This document shows positions 6,647-37,818 of a stretch of DNA of 37,820 nucleotides, in pieces. The DNA lies in the IMG/VR virus record IMGVR_UViG_3300037285_000140, positions 1 to 37,820 of that record. One strand, written 5' to 3'. The stretch's first letter is position 1. Every line of letters starts with the position of its first letter. A model generated the notes under the pieces. That model saw nothing but the letters and a program-made list of their open reading frames with translations. It had not been told where the DNA came from and ran no database searches. Position numbers and translations under genes: made by a program. The stretch comes from a virus.

Positions 6647-8143
6647 ATGTCATACGTCGATGCAATGTTCGACCGGAACGCTGATGTAATTAGAGTTGTT
6701 GAGAGAACAGACAATGGCAAACGCAAGTTTGTTGACTATCCTGTAAAGTACACATTTTACTACGAAGACCCTAAAGGAAAGTACAAAAGTATATTTGGAG
6801 ATCCTTTAACTAAAATTGTTTGCAAGAGCACAAAAGACTATCGAAAAGAACTTGCAATAAATCGAGACAAGAAGTTATTTGAGTCCGATATTAATCCCAT
6901 ATTCCAGTGTCTAAGCGAAAACTATGAGAATCAAGACGCGCCCAAGCTGAATGTGTGTTTCTTTGACATCGAAACTGACTTTGATCCCGAAAGAGGATTC
7001 GCGCCACCATCGGATCCATTTATGGCAATTACGGCAGTTACAGTATACTTGCAATGGATAGACGCCCTTATCACTGTTGCAATGCCGCCCAAAGGGCTCC
7101 CAATGGACCAAGCCGAAGCAATGTGCAAGGAAAGATGGGGCGACCAAGTAATGTTGTTTCCTAACGATAAGGAAGGAAACGGCGAAAGAGAAATGCTCAA
7201 AGTGTTTCTAGAACTAATCGAAGATGCTGATATCATCAGCGGATGGAACAGCGAAGGATATGATGTTCCGTATACTACAAATCGTATATCGCGCATACTA
7301 AGCAAAAATGATACTAGAAAGTTTTCACTATGGGATCAACTCCCACGCAAGAGAGAATTTGAAAAGTATGGCAAGACTGCAGAAACTTTTGATTATTCTG
7401 GTCGCGTACACTTGGACAGCCTTGAACTGTATAGAAAATATACGTATGAAGAACGTCACACATATAGACTTGATGCAATTGGTGAAATGGAAATTGGCGA
7501 GAATAAAACTGTATACGAAGGCACACTGGATCAATTGTACAACAACGACTTTGAAAAGTTTATTGAATACAATCGACAAGATACTGCATTGCTGGACAAG
7601 CTGGACAAGAAACTACGGTTTATTGATCTAGCTAATGAAATTGCACACGACAACACAGTGTTATTGCAAACTACAATGGGTGCAGTTGCAGTTACCGAAC
7701 AAGCAATTATCAATGAGTCGCACAGGCGCGGCATGCAAGTTCCAAACAGACGCAAGCACGAAGGCAACACACAAGCTGCCGGTGCATACGTAGCGTATCC
7801 TAAAAAAGGATTGCATCAATCTGTAGGATCAATGGACCTTAACTCGCTGTATCCAAGTGTAATTAGAGCACTCAACATGGCACCAGAAAGTATTATTGGG
7901 CAACTTCGCCCAATAATGACAGACGAAATGGTTCACAATGCAATGACGTTGCAGAAAAAATCATTTGCTGCGGCATGGGAAGGTCATTTTGGTACACTAG
8001 AATATGCAGCCGTAATGGAAAAGCGTAGAGATATTGACATTACTATTGACTGGGAAGACGGGCGCAGTGATGTGTTGAGTGCTGCCGAAGTAAACAGTGT
8101 TGTATTCGACAGTAACATGCCCAATATTTACTCACGAGTTTGA
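6647..8143 (+). CDS. 43: DNA polymerase gp43, N-terminal part (exonuclease and start of palm)
   Basis: 498 residues of a family B DNA polymerase. The 3'-5' exonuclease motifs are intact: Exo I FFDIETDF (about 105), Exo II IISGWNSEGYDVPY (about 197), Exo III FIEYNRQDTALLD (about 307). Polymerase motif A MDLNSLYPSVIRALN (about 398) is also present. The frame then runs into TGA at 8141-8143, while homologous sequence continues in the +1 frame (IFTHEFESVIPGLLKRWYSER). This piece lacks motifs B and C and cannot be a complete polymerase alone. Either the gene is truly split here, or a +1 frameshift restores it, or the assembly has an indel. T4-like phages with split gene 43 exist. The start has the strong site GTGGAG and a candidate autoregulatory hairpin. 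Confidence 0.9.
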   Translation: MSYVDAMFDRNADVIRVVERTDNGKRKFVDYPVKYTFYYEDPKGKYKSIFGDPLTKIVCKSTKDYRKELAINRDKKLFESDINPIFQCLSENYENQDAPKLNVCFFDIETDFDPERGFAPPSDPFMAITAVTVYLQWIDALITVAMPPKGLPMDQAEAMCKERWGDQVMLFPNDKEGNGEREMLKVFLELIEDADIISGWNSEGYDVPYTTNRISRILSKNDTRKFSLWDQLPRKREFEKYGKTAETFDYSGRVHLDSLELYRKYTYEERHTYRLDAIGEMEIGENKTVYEGTLDQLYNNDFEKFIEYNRQDTALLDKLDKKLRFIDLANEIAHDNTVLLQTTMGAVAVTEQAIINESHRRGMQVPNRRKHEGNTQAAGAYVAYPKKGLHQSVGSMDLNSLYPSVIRALNMAPESIIGQLRPIMTDEMVHNAMTLQKKSFAAAWEGHFGTLEYAAVMEKRRDIDITIDWEDGRSDVLSAAEVNSVVFDSNMPNIYSRV

Positions 8144-8822
8144 ATCTGTTATTCCTGGTTTATTAAAGAGGTGGTACTCAGAACGTAAGGAATTACAAAA
8201 AAGGTTAAAGAAAGCAATTGATGCAAAGAACGAAGCAGAAATTGTGTTCTGGGACAAGCGCCAGTTGGTAAAGAAGATTAACCTTAACTCGCTGTATGGT
8301 GCTATTCTTAATCCAGGTTGTAGATTCTTTGACAAGCGCATCGGACAATCAACTACATTAACTGGTAGACAGATTGTTAAGCATATGAGTGCAAAGGTCA
8401 ACGAAATTATTACAGGCGAATATGATCATATAGGCAAGGCTGTTATTTACGGCGACACTGACTCGTGTATAGCAGATTCGGTAATCGAGACTTCATTAGG
8501 AGATATGACCATTGAAAGCCTATTCAATAGGCTGGAAATTAAAACTAAAAATGGAGACAAGGAATACGCACACGACGACGATGTAATGGTAATGTCATAC
8601 GATAGAGAACGCAACGAACCATATATGGGTCATATTAATTATGTGTATCGCCACAAAGTCTCCAAGGATTTATATGAAATTGAGGATTTAGACGGGAATA
8701 TAGTTACAGTAACCGAAGATCATTCAGTAATGGTCGAACGCAACGGTGAATTAATAGAAGTTAAACCTCAGGAAATCGACGAAGGCGATATTATAATAAC
8801 ACTTAATATTCATCATACCTGA
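8097..8822 (+). CDS. 43: DNA polymerase gp43, middle part fused to N-terminal split intein
   Basis: The +1 frame continuation of gp43. It carries the palm/fingers segment with motif B KKINLNSLYGAILNPG and motif C YGDTD. At the latter point the sequence turns into an intein N-half (8463 onward) and ends at TGA 8820-8822. A GTG at 8097 could start an independent polypeptide, overlapping the N-terminal part by 47 bases, but no good ribosome binding site precedes it. Functional polymerase requires protein trans-splicing with the C-terminal part encoded at 9812-10894. Confidence 0.85.
   Translation: MLYSTVTCPIFTHEFESVIPGLLKRWYSERKELQKRLKKAIDAKNEAEIVFWDKRQLVKKINLNSLYGAILNPGCRFFDKRIGQSTTLTGRQIVKHMSAKVNEIITGEYDHIGKAVIYGDTDSCIADSVIETSLGDMTIESLFNRLEIKTKNGDKEYAHDDDVMVMSYDRERNEPYMGHINYVYRHKVSKDLYEIEDLDGNIVTVTEDHSVMVERNGELIEVKPQEIDEGDIIITLNIHHT
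8463..8819 (+). other. N-terminal split intein in polymerase motif C
   Basis: The intein starts within YGDTDS. Taking the TCG Ser at 8463 as residue 1 places the block A Asp-Ser (SCIADSVIE) at the usual positions 5-6 and gives a spliced YGDTD/SVYFS, the normal motif C. The Cys at 8466 is the alternative first residue. Block B is VTVTEDHSVMV, with the TxxH motif. A stop follows after about 119 residues with no endonuclease domain fused. Confidence 0.88.
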
Positions 8823-8828
8823 TAAATA
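8821..8828 (+). promoter_or_regulatory. Candidate late promoter GATAAATA before the homing endonuclease
   Basis: The box overlaps the stop of the N-intein frame and lies 33 bases before the endonuclease ATG, which has its own AAAGGA ribosome binding site. Late expression of a homing endonuclease is also known in T4. Confidence 0.6.
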
Positions 8829-8861
8829 CTATGGAGCAAGCACCGTAAGTAAAGGAATAAT

Positions 8862-9815
8862 ATGCCAAAATGTCTAGAATGTGGATTTGAAGCAAGTAGA
8901 TTGCAGTGGACCCACTTTAAATATAACTGTACAGGACGGTTTGCTTCAGGAAAAGAATATAAAGGTATCTACCCTGACGCAAAACTAGTCGACGATAAAT
9001 TAGCAAAAAAAACCGCTGTTACAAAATCAAACCTAATCAAAAAATACGGCGATCAGGAAGGAAACGAAAGGTGGACATCTTATATAACTAAGCAAGCATA
9101 TAGTAACACGTTCGAATCTAAACTCAAATCGCACGGGTGGACAAGATCAGAATTCGACGACTATAACAATAGCCGAGCTTGTACATTAGAAAATTTAATT
9201 GTTAGGCATGGAGAAGAACTTGGAATATTAAAATGGGAAGAATATGTCGAGAGACAGAGATATACTACAAGTATAGAATATTTTGTAAGTAAATATGGTA
9301 ACAAAGGTGAGTTAAAATGGAATCAATACTGCAAAGATAGAGGAAATTCACAGAATATAGAATTTATAAAACATAAATACAATCTGTCGCAGCCAGAAGC
9401 CGAGGCGTTGCTGGGGAATCGATATAGTAATAGATTTACCTCTAACGCTGAACAAACATTTTTACACAACATAGAAAAACTTATCGGAAAAGTACCGTAC
9501 AGTATAAACAGCAAACAGTATTGTATATGGTCTAATGAGTTGTCTGCTCCGTTGTTCTATGATTTAACGCACAGTGAGAAAAAGAAGATCATAGAATACA
9601 ATGGAGATTACTGGCACTGCAATCCTGAAAAATATAATTCAGATTTTATCATTAAACAATCAGGAGTAACAGCAAAAGAAGTATGGTCTAGAGATAAAAT
9701 TAAATTAGAAGAAGCAAAAAAACGTGGATTTGATGTAATGGTAGTGTGGGATAGACACTACACAGAAAATACTAAACTAGTAGAACAACAAATATTAAAA
9801 TGGTGGAACAAATGA
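8862..9815 (+). CDS. Vsr-like (EDxHD-type) homing endonuclease inside the fractured polymerase gene
   Basis: 317 residues. An N-terminal zinc-finger-like segment (C4, C7, H18, C23) precedes three imperfect repeats of the form KYGxxEGxxKWxxYxxxQ (residues about 57-83, 111-137, 138-165), probably DNA-binding. The C-terminal nuclease resembles Vsr-type folds: AEQTF (E197), LFYDLTH (D234), IIEYNGDYWHCNP (H252), and SRDKIKLEEAKKRGFDVMVVW (D278). This E-D-H-D set is that of the endonuclease family known to sit between split-intein halves in fractured genes. It should cut intein-less polymerase alleles at motif C and so spread the intein cassette. The ATG at 8862 has an AAAGGA site; the stop overlaps the next start. 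Confidence 0.88.
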   Translation: MPKCLECGFEASRLQWTHFKYNCTGRFASGKEYKGIYPDAKLVDDKLAKKTAVTKSNLIKKYGDQEGNERWTSYITKQAYSNTFESKLKSHGWTRSEFDDYNNSRACTLENLIVRHGEELGILKWEEYVERQRYTTSIEYFVSKYGNKGELKWNQYCKDRGNSQNIEFIKHKYNLSQPEAEALLGNRYSNRFTSNAEQTFLHNIEKLIGKVPYSINSKQYCIWSNELSAPLFYDLTHSEKKKIIEYNGDYWHCNPEKYNSDFIIKQSGVTAKEVWSRDKIKLEEAKKRGFDVMVVWDRHYTENTKLVEQQILKWWNK

Positions 9816-10039
9816 AAGATAAATTAATCAAGATATTATTAGCAAACACTAAAGAAGAAGTTGCTGTTTCTGTAAAGGACTTCCTGGATGGAGTTGGATC
9901 TAAGAAACTAAGTTTATCCCGAGGTAAAGTTAAAAGAGTTACCAAAGTTCGAAAAGCTAACGACGAATACGTATACGATATCGGAATGAAAAATAGTAAT
10001 CAGCCTTGGTTCTTTGCTAACAACATCCTAATCCATAAC
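9812..10039 (+). other. C-terminal split intein
   Basis: 76 codons. Blocks F and G read DEYVYDIGMKNSNQPWFFANNILIHN in two adjoining parts, with penultimate His and terminal Asn, followed by Ser as the +1 nucleophile. The half is longer than the 35-45 residues typical of C-inteins, so the break lies where an endonuclease domain would be in a full intein. Confidence 0.88.
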
Positions 10040-10894
10040 TCAGTCTACTTTAGTGCATACAACATGTTAAAAGACGATATCGATGCAGGAAAAGTACCCT
10101 GGGATACTGACAGCGTTATTAAACTGTATGATCAGATAGCCGACGAGACCAATAAGTCGTTCCCGGCGTTTATGGGTGCATCATTTCATTGCCCAAAGAA
10201 GCGTGCCGAAGTTATTGCAGCAGGTAGAGAAATTGTTGCAGAAGCAGGACTGTTCATCACCAAGAAAAGATATGCAGTACTAGTAGTTGACAACGAAGGT
10301 GAGCGCAAGGATGTTGACGGTAAGCCAGGAAAGATCAAAGCGCTAGGACTTGATCTTAAAAGATCAGATACTCCAGTGTTTATGCAAAAGTTCCTAAGTG
10401 AATTACTGACAATGGTTCTTCTGAAGCATCCTGAGCATGACGTGCTCGATGCAATTACCAAGTTTAGAAGAGAATTCAAGGATCGTCCTGGATACGAAAA
10501 AGGTTCGCCAAAACGTGCAAACAACATTCAAGCGTACCAACGCAAAGAAGCAAGTTTAGGAAGAGCAAATATGCCCGGACACGTTCGAGCAAGTATCAAC
10601 TGGAATACACTCAAGCGCATGAATGGTGACAAACACTCGCAGGAGATTGTAGACGGTATGAAGGTTATTGTTTGTAAGGTAAAAGCAAATCCGCTAGGAT
10701 ATACCAGTGTTGCTTTTCCAACAGACGAACTGCGCATGCCAAATTGGTTCAAAGAGTTGCCATTTGACGATAATGCAATGGAGTCAACCATCATTGACAA
10801 CAAGCTAGATAACCTGATTGGTGTGTTAAACTATGATTTACAAAGCACACTATTGAACAATACATTTAGCTCACTATTTGATTTTGGGGACTAG
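9812..10894 (+). CDS. 43: C-terminal split intein fused to DNA polymerase gp43 C-terminal part
   Basis: 360 residues. The first 76 form the C-intein, ending in NILIHN, followed by +1 Ser and the extein SVYFSAYN, which completes motif C. The remainder is the palm and thumb of gp43 (KKRYAVLVV, GLDLKRSDTP), ending in SSLFDFGD, which resembles the T4 gp43 C-terminal clamp-binding peptide. I chose ATG 9812 (ATGA overlap with the endonuclease stop, GGTGGA ahead) over ATG 9800. Together with the frame at 8097 this gives a trans-spliced polymerase; the clamp it should bind is encoded at 12860. Confidence 0.9.
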   Translation: MKDKLIKILLANTKEEVAVSVKDFLDGVGSKKLSLSRGKVKRVTKVRKANDEYVYDIGMKNSNQPWFFANNILIHNSVYFSAYNMLKDDIDAGKVPWDTDSVIKLYDQIADETNKSFPAFMGASFHCPKKRAEVIAAGREIVAEAGLFITKKRYAVLVVDNEGERKDVDGKPGKIKALGLDLKRSDTPVFMQKFLSELLTMVLLKHPEHDVLDAITKFRREFKDRPGYEKGSPKRANNIQAYQRKEASLGRANMPGHVRASINWNTLKRMNGDKHSQEIVDGMKVIVCKVKANPLGYTSVAFPTDELRMPNWFKELPFDDNAMESTIIDNKLDNLIGVLNYDLQSTLLNNTFSSLFDFGD

Positions 10895-10895
10895 T

Positions 10896-11333
10896 ATGAG
10901 AGTAGGTATTACGTTTTCAACTTTTGATTTGTTGCATGCTGGGCACATCGGCATGTTACGCGAAGCTAAAGAAAATTGCGATTATCTGATTGTAGGGTTA
11001 CAGACTGACCCTACAATCGATCGTCCAGAAACAAAAAATAAACCTGTGCAGACTCTAGTAGAAAGGTATGCACAGCTTAACGCAATAAAGTTTATTGACG
11101 AAATTGTTCCATATCAAACTGAGAGTGACTTAGTAGACATACTAGAACTATTTCAACTCGATGTACGTTTCCTAGGAGAAGAATACAAAGATAAGAACTT
11201 TGGCGGCAAATTTGTTTGCGAAGAGCGCGGAATTGATTTGCATTTTAACAAGCGTGACCATCGATTTAGTACCAGCAACTTGCGAGAACGAGTAATAGAA
11301 GCGGAGGCAAATAATGAACAAGTTTATATTTGA
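10896..11333 (+). CDS. Cytidylyltransferase-family nucleotidyltransferase (TagD-like)
   Basis: 145 residues, typical for the glycerol-3-phosphate cytidylyltransferase family. HAGHIGMLREAK (residues 15-26) is the HxGH nucleotide-binding motif and FSTSNLRERV near 127 is the (R/I)xSTSxLR signature. It would transfer a nucleotide to a phosphorylated polyol or sugar. The start is ATG 10896, one base after the polymerase stop. It is followed by a phosphomannomutase-like gene (20-base overlap), so it probably belongs to a sugar-nucleotide cassette. The substrate cannot be told from the sequence. Confidence 0.8.
   Translation: MRVGITFSTFDLLHAGHIGMLREAKENCDYLIVGLQTDPTIDRPETKNKPVQTLVERYAQLNAIKFIDEIVPYQTESDLVDILELFQLDVRFLGEEYKDKNFGGKFVCEERGIDLHFNKRDHRFSTSNLRERVIEAEANNEQVYI
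10988..11018 (+). repeat. 11-bp intragenic inverted repeat
   Basis: GATTGTAGGGT and ACCCTACAATC are exact reverse complements around a 9-base loop, inside the cytidylyltransferase gene. There is no U-tract and the role is unknown. Confidence 0.7.
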
Positions 11334-12054
11334 CGTAGACGGAACCTTGACACCAAGCAGAGGAATGATAGATACCGAATACAAAGATTACTTTTTATCA
11401 TTTTGTCAAGATAACGAAGTATATCTAGTAACCGGGTCTGACAGAGAAAAGACAATAGAACAACTCGGCGAATCAATCTACAACAGTGCTGCAATGGTAT
11501 TTAATTGTTCGGGCAATGACGTTTGGAAAGGGAGGCAACACATTTATACTAACCCGTGGAAGATGTCAGCTGCCGTTGTAGACCATTTAACAAGTGTAGG
11601 ACTAGCCAGTCAATGCCCTGAAAAGACTGGCAACCACATCGAATCACGACCTGGGTCAATTAACTTTAGTACAGTAGGCAGGAAAGCTAACTGTGTCCAG
11701 CGTGCTGCTTATATCGAATTTGACAATCGCACTCACGAACGTGAACATATTGTGAAAACATTTAACAACTGTTTTGGTACCACAGACAATTGCACGGCAT
11801 TAATTGGCGGAGAAACCGGAATTGATATTTCTGCAACAGGCCATGATAAGAGGCAAGTACTTGAAAAAATTAAGTTTACTCCTCGTAAAGATAAACTATT
11901 TTTCTTTGGTGACAAGACAACACCGGGCGGGAATGATTATCCGTTGGCATTCGAAATAAAGACTCGAGAAGTTGGAACTGTTGTTTCTGTTAAAAAATGG
12001 AGAGATACGTTTGAAACATTGTCGTATTACCAAGAGGCCAAGATAGCAAAATGA
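11314..12054 (+). CDS. Phosphomannomutase-like HAD-family enzyme
   Basis: 246 residues with the pattern of the eukaryotic-type phosphomannomutase (HAD-IIB). The catalytic FDVDGTLTPSR has D7 as nucleophile and D9 as acid/base. Substrate-binding and core motifs follow: SRPGSINFSTVGR (111-123), GGETGIDISATGHDKRQVL (165-183), FFFGDKTTPGGNDYP (197-210). The enzyme interconverts mannose-6-P and mannose-1-P and would feed GDP-sugar synthesis. It is coupled by overlap to a nucleotidyltransferase gene before and a nucleotide-sugar dehydrogenase after. Confidence 0.85.
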   Translation: MNKFIFDVDGTLTPSRGMIDTEYKDYFLSFCQDNEVYLVTGSDREKTIEQLGESIYNSAAMVFNCSGNDVWKGRQHIYTNPWKMSAAVVDHLTSVGLASQCPEKTGNHIESRPGSINFSTVGRKANCVQRAAYIEFDNRTHEREHIVKTFNNCFGTTDNCTALIGGETGIDISATGHDKRQVLEKIKFTPRKDKLFFFGDKTTPGGNDYPLAFEIKTREVGTVVSVKKWRDTFETLSYYQEAKIAK

Positions 12055-28315: not shown

Positions 28316-29398
28316 ATGTCTGAGATTACTAGAACCGTTAGCCCAAATAAGGGTAAAGCTGCAATTCGTCACGCGATGATGAAGCAACGTCCAATTTTCC
28401 TCTGGGGTCCTCCAGGTATCGGCAAGTCCGACATTGTGCATCAGATTGGCGCCAGCCTTGATGCACTTGTTATTGACATTCGTTTGTCACTGTGGGAACC
28501 AACTGACATCAAAGGCATTCCTTACTTTGACTCAAACATCGGCAAGATGGTATGGGGCGAGCCAGTTGAACTTCCAGACGAAGATCAAGCTAAAAAGCAT
28601 AAGCACATTATTTTGTTCTTGGACGAAATGAACTCTGCTGCGCCAGCTGTACAAGCTGCTGCATATCAGCTTATTCTTAACCGCAAGGTTGGTATGTACA
28701 AGCTGCCAGACAATGTAATGATCATTGCTGCTGGTAACCGAGAAGCAGACAAAGGCGTTACATACCGTATGCCGGCTCCGCTTGCTAACCGTTTTGTACA
28801 CCTCGAAATGGCTGTTGACTTTAACGACTGGTTCCAGTGGGCAGTTGACAACAAAGAACACAAGGACGTCGTTGGCTTTCTTCAGTTCTCTAAGAAAGAC
28901 TTGTATGACTTTAGCCCGCAGTCAAAAAGCCGTTCATTTGCAACGCCACGTAGTTGGTCGTTTGTGAGCGAACTTCTAAGTGATGAGCTTGACGAAGGCA
29001 CCCTAACTGACCTGATTGCTGGCGCAGTCGGCGAAGGCCTTGCAGTCAAGTTTATGGCTCACCGAAAGGTTGCATCTAGTATGCCAGATCCAACCGAGAT
29101 CCTTGCAGGACGCGTAAAAGAGATGAAGGCAAAAGAAATCAGTGCCATGTATTCCTTGACTGTGTCTCTTTGCTACGAACTCAAAGAAGCTAACGACGCT
29201 GGCGATAAGAAGTTTGACGACAAAGTCAACAACTTCTTAAAGTTTACAATGGACAACTTTGACACCGAACTTGTGGTCATGGGCATTAAGCTTGCCTTGT
29301 CACAGTACGGACTGCCAATTGATCCTGATGCAGTCGAATGCTTTGACGAGTTCCACGATCGTTACGGCAAGTACATCAAGGCTGCGCAAGCTTCCTAA
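28316..29398 (+). CDS. MoxR-type AAA+ ATPase
   Basis: 360 residues. Walker A GPPGIGKS (31-38), Walker B IILFLDEMN (D103, E104), sensor-1 IIAAGN and an arginine-finger region LANRFVHLEM follow MoxR-type AAA+ order. Such ATPases work with a VWA-domain partner as chaperones or metal-insertion machines; the next gene encodes one. The C-terminal 150 residues form the usual lid helices. A strong terminator hairpin follows. Confidence 0.85.
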   Translation: MSEITRTVSPNKGKAAIRHAMMKQRPIFLWGPPGIGKSDIVHQIGASLDALVIDIRLSLWEPTDIKGIPYFDSNIGKMVWGEPVELPDEDQAKKHKHIILFLDEMNSAAPAVQAAAYQLILNRKVGMYKLPDNVMIIAAGNREADKGVTYRMPAPLANRFVHLEMAVDFNDWFQWAVDNKEHKDVVGFLQFSKKDLYDFSPQSKSRSFATPRSWSFVSELLSDELDEGTLTDLIAGAVGEGLAVKFMAHRKVASSMPDPTEILAGRVKEMKAKEISAMYSLTVSLCYELKEANDAGDKKFDDKVNNFLKFTMDNFDTELVVMGIKLALSQYGLPIDPDAVECFDEFHDRYGKYIKAAQAS

Positions 29399-29400
29399 AG

Positions 29401-29455
29401 TGAGTCAAGTGGGCAGGATCATCCTGCCCACTTTCTCTTACTAGAGGTTGACTCA
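29401..29455. repeat. Outer 8-bp inverted repeat around the terminator
   Basis: TGAGTCAA (29401-29408) and TTGACTCA (29448-29455) are exact reverse complements enclosing the terminator hairpin. The right arm contains the -35 box of the next promoter. Confidence 0.75.
29409..29431 (+). terminator. Rho-independent terminator after the AAA ATPase gene
   Basis: GTGGGCAGGAT (29409-29419) pairs with ATCCTGCCCAC (29421-29431), a GC-rich hairpin followed by TTTCTCTT. It lies 10 bases after the ATPase stop. Confidence 0.75.
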
Positions 29456-29476
29456 CTGAAAGATAAATGTTACACT
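29448..29476 (+). promoter_or_regulatory. Sigma70-like promoter before the VWA gene
   Basis: TTGACT (29448-29453), a 17-base spacer, TACACT (29471-29476). A GATAAATG near-match to the late box lies in the spacer (29462-29469). Confidence 0.6.
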
Positions 29477-29503
29477 ACTATATAGACAACACATGAGGTA
29501 AAA

Positions 29504-30799
29504 ATGTCCGTTAAACAAACTGCATCCAACGCAAAAAAGAACTGGGCACCAAACCCGGATCTTACACCAGAAGAGCTTAAAGTTATGGGAGAAGATGTAA
29601 TGGATCGCATTATCATCGCCCGGCTTGGTCTCCTTCTGCGGCATCCGTTCTTTGGCAACATGGCAACTCGACTGCGCGTCGAAGCGGCTGATGACTGGTG
29701 CCCAACTGCTGCTACTGACGGACGCCACTTGTACTACAATACCCAGTTTTTTGCATCAATGACCAACAAAGAAATTGAGTTTGTTATTGCACACGAAGTT
29801 CTGCATTGTGTGTTTGATCACCTTGGACGACGCGAAGAACGCCACCCAAAATTGTACAATATTGCTGCTGACTATATTGTCAACAACTTACTTGTACGTG
29901 ATCGCATCGGACATAAGCCAAAGCTAATTGACTGTTTTCAAGACTTCAAGTACGACAAGCTGACTTCCGAGGAAGTGTATGATCTGTTGTTTGATGAAGC
30001 CGAAAAGAACGGCCAGAGTGCAATTGATGCGCTTGGTGAAATGCTCGACGAGCACCTCGACTGGGGTCCTAGTGAAGATGGCGAAGAAGGCGTCGGCGAA
30101 GGCAAAGACGGAAAAGGCAAAGGTCGGCCGCGTTACAACGACGACGAAATGCGTGCTATCAAAGACGAGATCAAAGAAGCTATGCTACAAGCGCATCAGG
30201 CTTCGGGCGCCGGTAACACACCAGGCGAGATCACTCGCATGATCAAGGAACTGACTGAGCCCAAAATGAACTGGCGTGAGCTGCTTCGTCAGCAGATTCA
30301 GAGCACTGTTCGCAGTGACTATTCATTTAGTCGCCCAAGTCGTAAAGGTCAGTCTACTGGCGCAATTCTTCCAGGTATGATGTTTGCAGAAACAATTGAC
30401 CTTTGCATATGTCTTGATATGTCAGGTTCGATTGGCGACGAGCAGGCACGCGATTTCTTAAGCGAGATCAAAGGTATTATGGAAGAATACCAAGACTACC
30501 AGATCAAGCTATGGTGCTTTGACACTAAAGTCTACAACGAGCAGGACTTTAGTGCAGATGGTGGCGATGATTTGATGGACTACAACATCATGGGCGGTGG
30601 CGGCACCGACTTTATGGTCAACTGGGATTACATGAAAGAGCACGGTATCGAGCCTAAGAAGTTTATCATGTTTACAGACGGGTATGCCTGGAACAGCTGG
30701 GGTGATGAGAATTACTGTGATACAATCTTTATTATTCACAGCCACCATGATAAGACAGTCGAAGGGCCGTTTGGTGTAACTGCACACTACGAGGCATAA
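29504..30799 (+). CDS. VWA-like protein with HExxH metallopeptidase-like domain
   Basis: 431 residues. The N-terminal domain carries HEVLH (H97, E98, H101), the zincin motif, within IEFVIAHEVLHCVFDH. A charged low-complexity linker (about 180-215) leads to a C-terminal VWA-like domain with LCICLDMSGSIGDEQ, whose DxSxS is the metal-ion-dependent adhesion site, and GGGGTDF. This matches the DUF2201-type partner of MoxR AAA+ ATPases. The pair probably remodels or cleaves a protein target, which is unknown. Confidence 0.82.
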   Translation: MSVKQTASNAKKNWAPNPDLTPEELKVMGEDVMDRIIIARLGLLLRHPFFGNMATRLRVEAADDWCPTAATDGRHLYYNTQFFASMTNKEIEFVIAHEVLHCVFDHLGRREERHPKLYNIAADYIVNNLLVRDRIGHKPKLIDCFQDFKYDKLTSEEVYDLLFDEAEKNGQSAIDALGEMLDEHLDWGPSEDGEEGVGEGKDGKGKGRPRYNDDEMRAIKDEIKEAMLQAHQASGAGNTPGEITRMIKELTEPKMNWRELLRQQIQSTVRSDYSFSRPSRKGQSTGAILPGMMFAETIDLCICLDMSGSIGDEQARDFLSEIKGIMEEYQDYQIKLWCFDTKVYNEQDFSADGGDDLMDYNIMGGGGTDFMVNWDYMKEHGIEPKKFIMFTDGYAWNSWGDENYCDTIFIIHSHHDKTVEGPFGVTAHYEA

Positions 30800-36672: not shown

Positions 36673-37818
36673 CTAAGATATGATAACGATTGCCCGGATT
36701 AGGCTTTCGTAGAATAGATCACTAAGAAAAAATCCGTATATTGCTGGACTTGTATCCCAATGTCTGAGTGTGTATCCTAGTACTGATAGACACAGTATAC
36801 ATATAAACATCCAACTATGTATTGGAAAAGTTATAATACTCACTGTACTAATAGTAGTTAGTATCAAGAGATTTACCATATTTCTATAAGTTTTATAAAA
36901 ATATGCTACTCTAGCTAACAAATTAAAGCCATACCAACTTAATACTAAACAAATAAAAGTTACAAACGGTATAATATATATTATTTTATGTAATTGATTA
37001 ATTGTATTTTCAGCAGTAAAGACAAAGCCGTTCTCTAACATGAGATAATAGATTAAGACTTCACTGCCTGTGATAGGTATAGCTAAGATAAGCAAAGGAA
37101 GTAATGAACTAAGTGCGCCACTGTTGTTCGCTGCCTCTGCGGCTGCTATGCTCTTTAATACAGGCTTACGAAAAAATCGTTTGACTATATTGGCACTTGC
37201 ATAGCTGCCAAGAATGTTTGTTACACCCGGTATAAGGCCGCACCAAAAACCAATAAAGCTTCCTAGTAAAGCAGGTATTATAATACCTTTACCAACTGCA
37301 AATGTATTTATGCTCCGTTCCTTTGTTATGGACAAATCACGGTTAGTTGCAAGTTCGGGAACTATATACAATCCAACCATTATGCTTGCAAAAGGTATGC
37401 CCAGTGCTAAGTAAGAGTTGCCAAATGTAGCAAAACTATCAAAGGTAATAGGGTCAATTCCTACTCTTGCAAGTAGCCCGCCGAGCCCAAAGAGTGCAAG
37501 TGTAATTATCTTATTTTGTTTTGTAAGAAATGTAATCATTGTGATTGCACTAAAGATTACAATAGTCTGAACAACACTGTTATAGAATTTAAAAATATGC
37601 AATATATTAGGCAATACAGTAATAAACACGATTAATGCAAATGCTACACCTATACTACTGCTTATTGCATTGCTACTCACTGCAAGGCTGCCGAATCCTT
37701 TACGATACAATCGGTGGCCTTCCCTAGCAGTGCTAATTGCTGTTGCATCGCCGGGGATGCCGTATAATATTGCTGTAACGCTATTTGTGTAGTTGGCCGT
37801 GATTAGTACGGCAACATA
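36673..37818 (-). CDS. tctA: TctA-like tripartite tricarboxylate transporter permease, 5' end outside window
   Basis: 381 residues are visible, and the frame stays open through the window edge at 37818; a TTG at 37710 is not the start. TNSVTAILYGIPGDATAISTAREGHRL is the first TctA signature (GIPG followed by a charged G-x-x-L), given here in two parts. The second half has FWCGLIPGVTNILGSYA and AAAEAANNSGALSSLLPLLI, the mirrored signature of the family. Eight or more hydrophobic segments are visible. The canonical partner TctB is not between this gene and tctC; it could lie upstream, outside the window. Confidence 0.85.
   Translation of the reverse strand, partial: YVAVLITANYTNSVTAILYGIPGDATAISTAREGHRLYRKGFGSLAVSSNAISSSIGVAFALIVFITVLPNILHIFKFYNSVVQTIVIFSAITMITFLTKQNKIITLALFGLGGLLARVGIDPITFDSFATFGNSYLALGIPFASIMVGLYIVPELATNRDLSITKERSINTFAVGKGIIIPALLGSFIGFWCGLIPGVTNILGSYASANIVKRFFRKPVLKSIAAAEAANNSGALSSLLPLLILAIPITGSEVLIYYLMLENGFVFTAENTINQLHKIIYIIPFVTFICLVLSWYGFNLLARVAYFYKTYRNMVNLLILTTISTVSIITFPIHSWMFICILCLSVLGYTLRHWDTSPAIYGFFLSDLFYESLIRAIVIIS

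What the first reader, a model, noticed from the sequence alone, without database searches (positions are those of the whole stretch)
8463..10042. Split intein plus EDxHD endonuclease fracturing DNA polymerase at its catalytic YGDTDS motif
The polymerase frame passes into an intein N-half at YGDTD, stops, and is followed by a free-standing Vsr-like endonuclease with its own late promoter, then a C-intein ending NILIHN/S that resumes at SVYFSAYN. This is the fractured-gene architecture known from metagenomic phage genes such as helicases and ribonucleotide reductases, here at the most conserved residue set of a replicative polymerase. Residue 1 appears to be Ser rather than Cys, which restores a normal motif C. 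The phage then depends on trans-splicing for replication.
Basis: partly seen in the sequence, partly recalled or inferred. Interest (0 to 1): 0.85.

Follow-up and report, generated by a model that had tools for sequence, protein, structure and literature searches.

The report
Phage polymerase split by mobile intein
A giant bacterial virus carries its DNA-copying enzyme in separate pieces, with a self-splicing protein element cutting through the catalytic centre and a gene-copying nuclease lodged in the gap; the arrangement is real and was already known from a few other viruses, but its relatives show it spreading between viruses and carrying its own "late" control switch.

Summary
The polymerase runs to YGDTD, enters an N-intein at Ser1 (8463-8819) and stops. 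A free-standing EDxHD endonuclease follows (8862-9815), then a C-intein ending HN (to 10039), and the polymerase resumes at SVYFSAYN. Intein-less relatives read YGDTDSVYFSAY with one Ser, so Ser1/Ser+1 splicing restores motif C exactly. All 64 distinct homologous N-inteins have Ser1, and 63 carry the His specific to Ser1 inteins. The endonuclease model matches I-Bth0305I and Vsr. The "late promoter" also holds up: ATAAATA precedes the endonuclease in 42 of 54 distinct homologues (3.5 expected) and is the most enriched upstream 7-mer in this lineage. This is a new member of a known kind: Aeromonas phages Aes123/Aes508 have the same break with an experimentally studied split intein, and Pseudomonas phage MIJ3 has a similar one. 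What I did not find in the literature held here: a late promoter plus RBS hairpin on a split-intein endonuclease, homologous elements at two neighbouring sites (YGD|TDS and YGDTD|S), and 99%-identical empty and occupied alleles. Caveat: the window lacks 23 nt at 8121/8122 that its relatives have, so its polymerase N-part is also broken in frame, for real or by assembly error.

The parts
6647..8143 (+). Polymerase N-terminal ORF (exonuclease domain and first palm motifs); ends out of frame after the 23-nt deletion
   Evidence: PF03104 E 1.4e-16, PHROG 262 E 5.5e-106; for the frame break
8121..8122 (+). Junction at which 23 nt present in near relatives (L082, L165-L168) are missing; breaks the frame between polymerase N-part and fingers/palm part
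   Evidence: other relatives have 24 nt where the window has 1
8124..8462 (+). Polymerase fingers and palm up to YGDTD (N-extein), in the frame of ORF 8097-8822
8463..8819 (+). N-intein, 119 aa, Ser1 (TCG 8463-8465), motif NX His64 preceded by Arg, N3 His87; stop TGA 8820-8822
   Evidence: TIGR01445 25.8 bits; 64/64 homologues Ser1 and 63/64 NX His
8822..8829 (+). ATAAATAC, T4-type late promoter element upstream of the endonuclease
   Evidence: 42/54 homologous leaders against 3.5 shuffled; most enriched upstream 7-mer; gp55-like sigma in relatives
8829..8849 (+). Weak hairpin ACTATGG..CCGTAAG after the promoter; Shine-Dalgarno AAAGGA (8851-8856) lies outside it
   Evidence: z -0.7 in the window; stronger and RBS-containing in many relatives
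8862..9815 (+). Free-standing EDxHD (Vsr-like) homing endonuclease, 317 aa; conserved E197, D234, H252
   Evidence: PHROG 22677 E 2.3e-52; AF2 pLDDT 91; Foldseek best I-Bth0305I, then Vsr; alignment A1
9812..10039 (+). C-intein, 76 aa, ends NILIHN; ATG overlaps the endonuclease stop (ATGA)
   Evidence: 33% to the SCTP-2 contiguous intein
10040..10894 (+). Polymerase C-extein from Ser+1 (TCA): SVYFSAYN... to the stop
   Evidence: PHROG 1918 E 1.6e-43; 95% to L082, 83% to intein-less L086

Best explanation
This is a mobile, naturally split Ser1/Ser+1 intein in the family B DNA polymerase of a jumbo phage distantly related to T4. Shown: the coding sequence is interrupted after YGDTD by an N-intein and a stop, an EDxHD endonuclease gene occupies the gap, and a C-intein reopens the polymerase at Ser+1. 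Inferred: the two intein halves find each other after translation and splice the polymerase fragments through oxyester chemistry, restoring YGDTDSVYF. The endonuclease, expressed mainly late from its own T4-type promoter, cuts intein-less polymerase genes at motif C, and recombination copies the whole cassette into them. The late timing would keep the nuclease from interfering with polymerase production early in infection.
For: Intein HMM and PHROG matches; both halves fit one contiguous intein; Ser1 in 64/64, NX His in 63/64, N3 DH in 64/64, +1 Ser or Thr; single-Ser motif C in intein-less relatives; EDxHD fold and conserved E, D, H; mobility: empty L158 against occupied L003, about 99% identical on both flanks, a 92-97% identical insert in a polymerase that is 66-84% identical in DNA (WIN against L171), at least 8 presence/absence changes on the polymerase tree; late promoter; same layout with an experimentally studied intein in Aes123 (PMC11923092).
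Against: No splicing or cleavage was measured. The C-intein alone scores weakly against PF14890 (E 0.012). The window's polymerase has a second frame break (8121/8122) that the intein does not mend, so this copy may be a non-functional variant or an assembly error.
Confidence: 0.9

Rival explanations
1. Residue 1 is the Cys at the second codon (YGDTDS|CIADS...), so the intein is a Cys1 intein and the ligated polymerase has an extra Ser (YGDTDSSVYF).
For: In the window a Cys follows the Ser, and Cys1 is the commonest intein nucleophile (general knowledge).
Against: Most homologues have V, L or I where the window has Cys, always after Ser; 64/64 have Ser1 and 63/64 carry the NX His described as specific to Ser1 inteins (PMC10189870); intein-less polymerases have a single Ser.
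Confidence: 0.03
2. The break is a degenerate remnant: the window's polymerase is a pseudogene (23-nt deletion plus split intein) and this copy does not splice usefully.
For: The 23-nt deletion breaks the frame and is absent from all near relatives; no good start site for the second ORF was found; no second copy of the polymerase C-half in the 37.8-kb record.
Against: Intein, endonuclease and C-extein are intact and conserved in catalytic residues; one indel in a metagenomic contig may be an assembly error; T4-like phages with a polymerase split into gp43A and gp43B are functional (PMC2988022).
Confidence: 0.2
3. The endonuclease is an unrelated nuclease that happens to lie between two polymerase genes which work as separate subunits, without splicing.
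For: Split gp43A/gp43B subunits co-purify and are active in phage 25 (PMC2988022); L082 has lost the endonuclease but keeps the halves.
Against: The halves carry conserved intein motifs up to the exact junction and match a contiguous intein; without splicing each half would keep a long intein tail at the catalytic motif C.
Confidence: 0.04

Closest known systems
Aeromonas phage Aes123/Aes508 gp43B-1 / VSR-like endonuclease / gp43B-2 with the Aes123 PolB1 split intein
   Same: Same gene, same insertion point (D/TD then Ser1, Ser+1), homologous Vsr-like endonuclease in the gap, overlapping ORFs; the intein's trans-splicing and crystal structure are published (PMC11923092, PMC13014065)
   Different: T4-like Straboviridae rather than jumbo phage; 32% identical endonuclease; endonuclease overlaps the N-intein ORF, so there is no leader with promoter; gp43A/gp43B split as well
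Pseudomonas jumbo phages MIJ3, PA5oct, Cassandra (split PolB with split intein)
   Same: Split intein at YGDTD|S, C-half 47.7% identical; reported for MIJ3 in PMC6892783
   Different: A longer endonuclease between the halves, called HNH in PMC6892783; it did not come up in the search with the window endonuclease
Klebsiella jumbo phages KP13-7 and phiKp_21
   Same: N-intein, homologous endonuclease (37%) and C-intein in PolB
   Different: Insertion two codons earlier, YGD|TDS with Thr+1; annotated as hypothetical proteins
Fractured genes with EDxHD endonucleases (Dassa et al. 2009; paper not held here)
   Same: Split intein halves with a free-standing EDxHD endonuclease between them (from general knowledge)
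   Different: Described for other genes as recalled; not checked against the paper
T4 I-TevI, segB and Aeh1 mobE expression switch (late promoter plus RBS hairpin; PMC2988022)
   Same: Late promoter directly upstream of a homing endonuclease inside an early/middle gene; hairpin with RBS in relatives of the window
   Different: There tied to introns or free-standing genes, here to a split intein; hairpin weak in the window itself

Membership tests
Fractured gene with split intein | Host gene interrupted at a conserved site by N-intein and stop, then C-intein and restart | tested here: met
Fractured gene with split intein | Free-standing endonuclease ORF between the halves | tested here: met
   8862-9815
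Fractured gene with split intein | Protein trans-splicing | not testable with these tools
   Needs co-expression and mass spectrometry
Cysteine-less class 1 split inteins (Aes123 PolB1 type) | Ser1 and Ser/Thr+1 | tested here: met
   Ser1 in 64/64; +1 Ser or Thr in all junctions counted; single Ser in intein-less motif C
Cysteine-less class 1 split inteins (Aes123 PolB1 type) | Motif NX His preceded by Arg/Lys, and N3 His | tested here: met
   Arg63-His64 and His87 in the window; 63/64 and 64/64 in homologues (motif from PMC10189870)
Cysteine-less class 1 split inteins (Aes123 PolB1 type) | No essential cysteine | tested here: inconclusive
   One Cys at position 2 of the N-intein, none in the C-intein; position 2 is V, L or I in most homologues, so it is probably not essential
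EDxHD homing endonucleases | Vsr-like catalytic fold | tested here: met
   Foldseek best hit 3r3p I-Bth0305I (probability 0.99, E 0.06), then Vsr 1vsr and 1cw0; profile search top 3 all Vsr, E 0.12-0.16
EDxHD homing endonucleases | Conserved E, D, H, D residues | tested here: met
   E197, D234, H252 invariant in 19 sequences; the last Asp conserved in most, not all
EDxHD homing endonucleases | Site-specific cleavage of the intein-less allele | not testable with these tools
   Genetic traces of mobility only
I-TevI-type late expression switch | T4-type late promoter immediately upstream of the endonuclease | tested here: met
   (sequence statistics; transcription not measured)
I-TevI-type late expression switch | Hairpin that includes the RBS | tested here: inconclusive
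   In relatives 79% of cells paired against 16-52% when slid, shuffles 25/500 as high, but RNAalifold predicts no consensus structure; in the window the hairpin is weak and leaves the RBS free

The most novel reading that the evidence does not exclude
A family of jumbo-phage split inteins carries, with its EDxHD endonuclease, an I-TevI-like late promoter and RBS-hairpin switch, and has moved at least twice between two neighbouring Asp residues of the polymerase motif C (YGD|TDS and YGDTD|S), each time keeping Asp at -1 and a Ser/Thr at +1 so that splicing still restores the catalytic site.
Probability: 0.6. Interest if true: 0.6.

Novelty: new member of a known kind. Interest (0 to 1): 0.45.

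Why it matters
A replicative polymerase whose catalytic motif is assembled only after trans-splicing is a strong test case of how a selfish element survives in an essential gene. [quoted passage not shown] The near-identical empty and occupied alleles, and the conserved late promoter, make homing and its timing directly testable.

Tried and rejected
Cys1 reading of the junction: rejected. TATAAATA as the promoter consensus: absent from the window and not above control in the 251-kb relative; ATAAATA upstream of ORFs is the enriched form. RNAalifold on 37 leaders gave no structure; the hairpin rests on the named-structure counts and single folds. Pfam and NCBIfam gave no significant family for the endonuclease. 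Rfam found no intron in the window. A ribosomal frameshift to rescue the 23-nt deletion was considered and has no support. In the first polymerase tree L021 was mislabelled as intein-less; one search replaces it. Dassa et al. 2009 and Bhagawati et al. 2019 are not held, so comparison with them is indirect.

Full report
What is there. The record is a 37,820-base virus contig. Its nearest relative, a 251-kb contig (L082/L039), is 98% identical in the N-terminal polymerase protein, so the window is probably a piece of a jumbo phage. Polymerase sequence runs from 6647 to YGDTD (8462), passes into an N-intein at Ser (8463) and stops at 8822. A 317-aa endonuclease follows (8862-9815). A C-intein (9812-10039) ends in HN and the polymerase resumes at SVYFSAYN.

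The intein. TIGR01445 matches the N-half above its cut-off, and by position its first column falls on the Ser of YGDTD|S; PF14890 matches both halves, below its cut-off. Both halves align to one uninterrupted intein in Salicola phage SCTP-2, which shows that they are two parts of one domain. Across relatives, 64 of 64 distinct N-inteins begin with Ser, 63 carry the Arg/Lys-His pair that Pasch et al. (PMC10189870) describe as specific to Ser1 inteins, and all have the N3 His; the residue after the C-terminal HN is Ser or Thr. Intein-less relatives have one Ser in YGDTDSVYF, so only the Ser1 reading restores the native sequence.

The endonuclease. It has no significant Pfam family, but PHROG 22677 at E 2.3e-52. 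A profile from 19 relatives finds three Vsr entries first in the PDB, at weak E-values (0.12-0.16). The AlphaFold2 model (pLDDT 91) has as best Foldseek hit the catalytic domain of I-Bth0305I (probability 0.99, E 0.06, TM-score 0.66 by target), followed by Vsr. E197, D234 and H252 are invariant. I file it as EDxHD on fold and residues; cleavage is not shown.

Mobility. Contig L158 carries the uninterrupted gene and L003 the interrupted one, with 99.4% identity over 2.9 kb before and 99.1% over 1.2 kb after the insertion. Against L171 (same contig as L043) the window's insert is 92-97% identical in DNA while the upstream polymerase is 66-84% identical. On a tree of 40 polymerases the element appears or disappears at least 8 times. 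In L082 the endonuclease has been deleted across a CCTGA repeat (about 806 bases), leaving its last 63 codons and both intein halves, a plausible decay stage of the homing cycle.

Two sites. Homologous elements sit either at YGDTD|S (window, Aes123, MIJ3 group) or at YGD|TDS (most of the other relatives found, and phiKp_21), with Asp at -1 in both. Trees of endonuclease and of intein reject a single clade of YGD|TDS elements (AU p 0.031 and 0.008). The group was named from the alignment, not from the tree, but the p-value for the endonuclease is only moderate. I infer at least two shifts by six bases.

Late expression. Of 54 distinct leaders upstream of the endonuclease, 42 contain ATAAATA (200 dinucleotide shuffles: mean 3.5, maximum 8). 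Upstream of ORFs in the window and in 76 kb of the 251-kb relative ATAAATA is the most enriched 7-mer (13 against 1.3); in the window it also precedes a gene with a weak virion structural protein match (523) and one with a tropism-determinant-like domain (32571). A gp55-like late sigma factor is found in all six large relatives searched (E 1e-15 to 1e-24; 0 of 14 controls). Many relatives also have a hairpin from just after the promoter to the start codon with the Shine-Dalgarno in its loop. As a named structure it pairs in 79% of cells against 16-52% when slid, but column shuffles reach that value in 25 of 500 and RNAalifold predicts nothing, so this part is moderate evidence. In the window the hairpin is weak and leaves the Shine-Dalgarno free. 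The arrangement matches the T4 I-TevI, segB and mobE switches reviewed in PMC2988022; I found no paper in the held library that joins it to a split intein. That the switch works by start-site choice, as in I-TevI, is inferred.

The frame break. Relative to near relatives the window lacks 23 bases between 8121 and 8122, so ORF 6647-8143 and the fingers/palm ORF are in different frames. No good start for the second ORF was found. Whether this is an assembly error, a dead variant or a functional extra split is open; split gp43A/gp43B polymerases work in Aeromonas phage 25 (PMC2988022).

Known or new. Aes123 and Aes508 have the same fracture at the same residues, with an intein whose trans-splicing has been measured and whose structure is solved (PMC11923092, PMC13014065). 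MIJ3 was reported with a split PolB and split intein (PMC6892783), and polymerase genes split by endonucleases are frequent in Jug phages (PMC12363816). The finding is therefore a new member of a known kind. The late switch, the two sites and the allele pairs are the parts I could not find described.

Noticed in passing
window 8121-8122: 23-nt deletion relative to all near relatives breaks the polymerase frame upstream of the intein; real or assembly error not decided.
   Followed up: partly
L082 2335-4060 (251-kb relative): The polymerase is also split in the fingers by an ORF that may be a homing endonuclease, and has a group I intron next to motif B (Rfam RF00028), much as in Aes508.
   Followed up: partly
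L007 2352-2555; L009 4183-4397: Group I introns in the motif B region of the polymerase in two further relatives.
   Followed up: no
window 11314-12054: ORF matching eukaryotic-type phosphomannomutase (PF03332, E 9e-27), next to a cytidylyltransferase-like ORF (10878-11333).
   Followed up: no
window 28316-30799: MoxR-like AAA ATPase next to a DUF2201 metallopeptidase/VWA protein.
   Followed up: no
window 36673-37818, minus strand: TctA tricarboxylate transporter fragment at the contig end, a bacterial-type gene; possible chimera or host-derived gene.
   Followed up: no
L163 3138-4820 (Pseudomonas phage Cassandra): A longer endonuclease, not recovered by a search with the window's, sits between intein halves at the same YGDTD|S site.
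   Followed up: no
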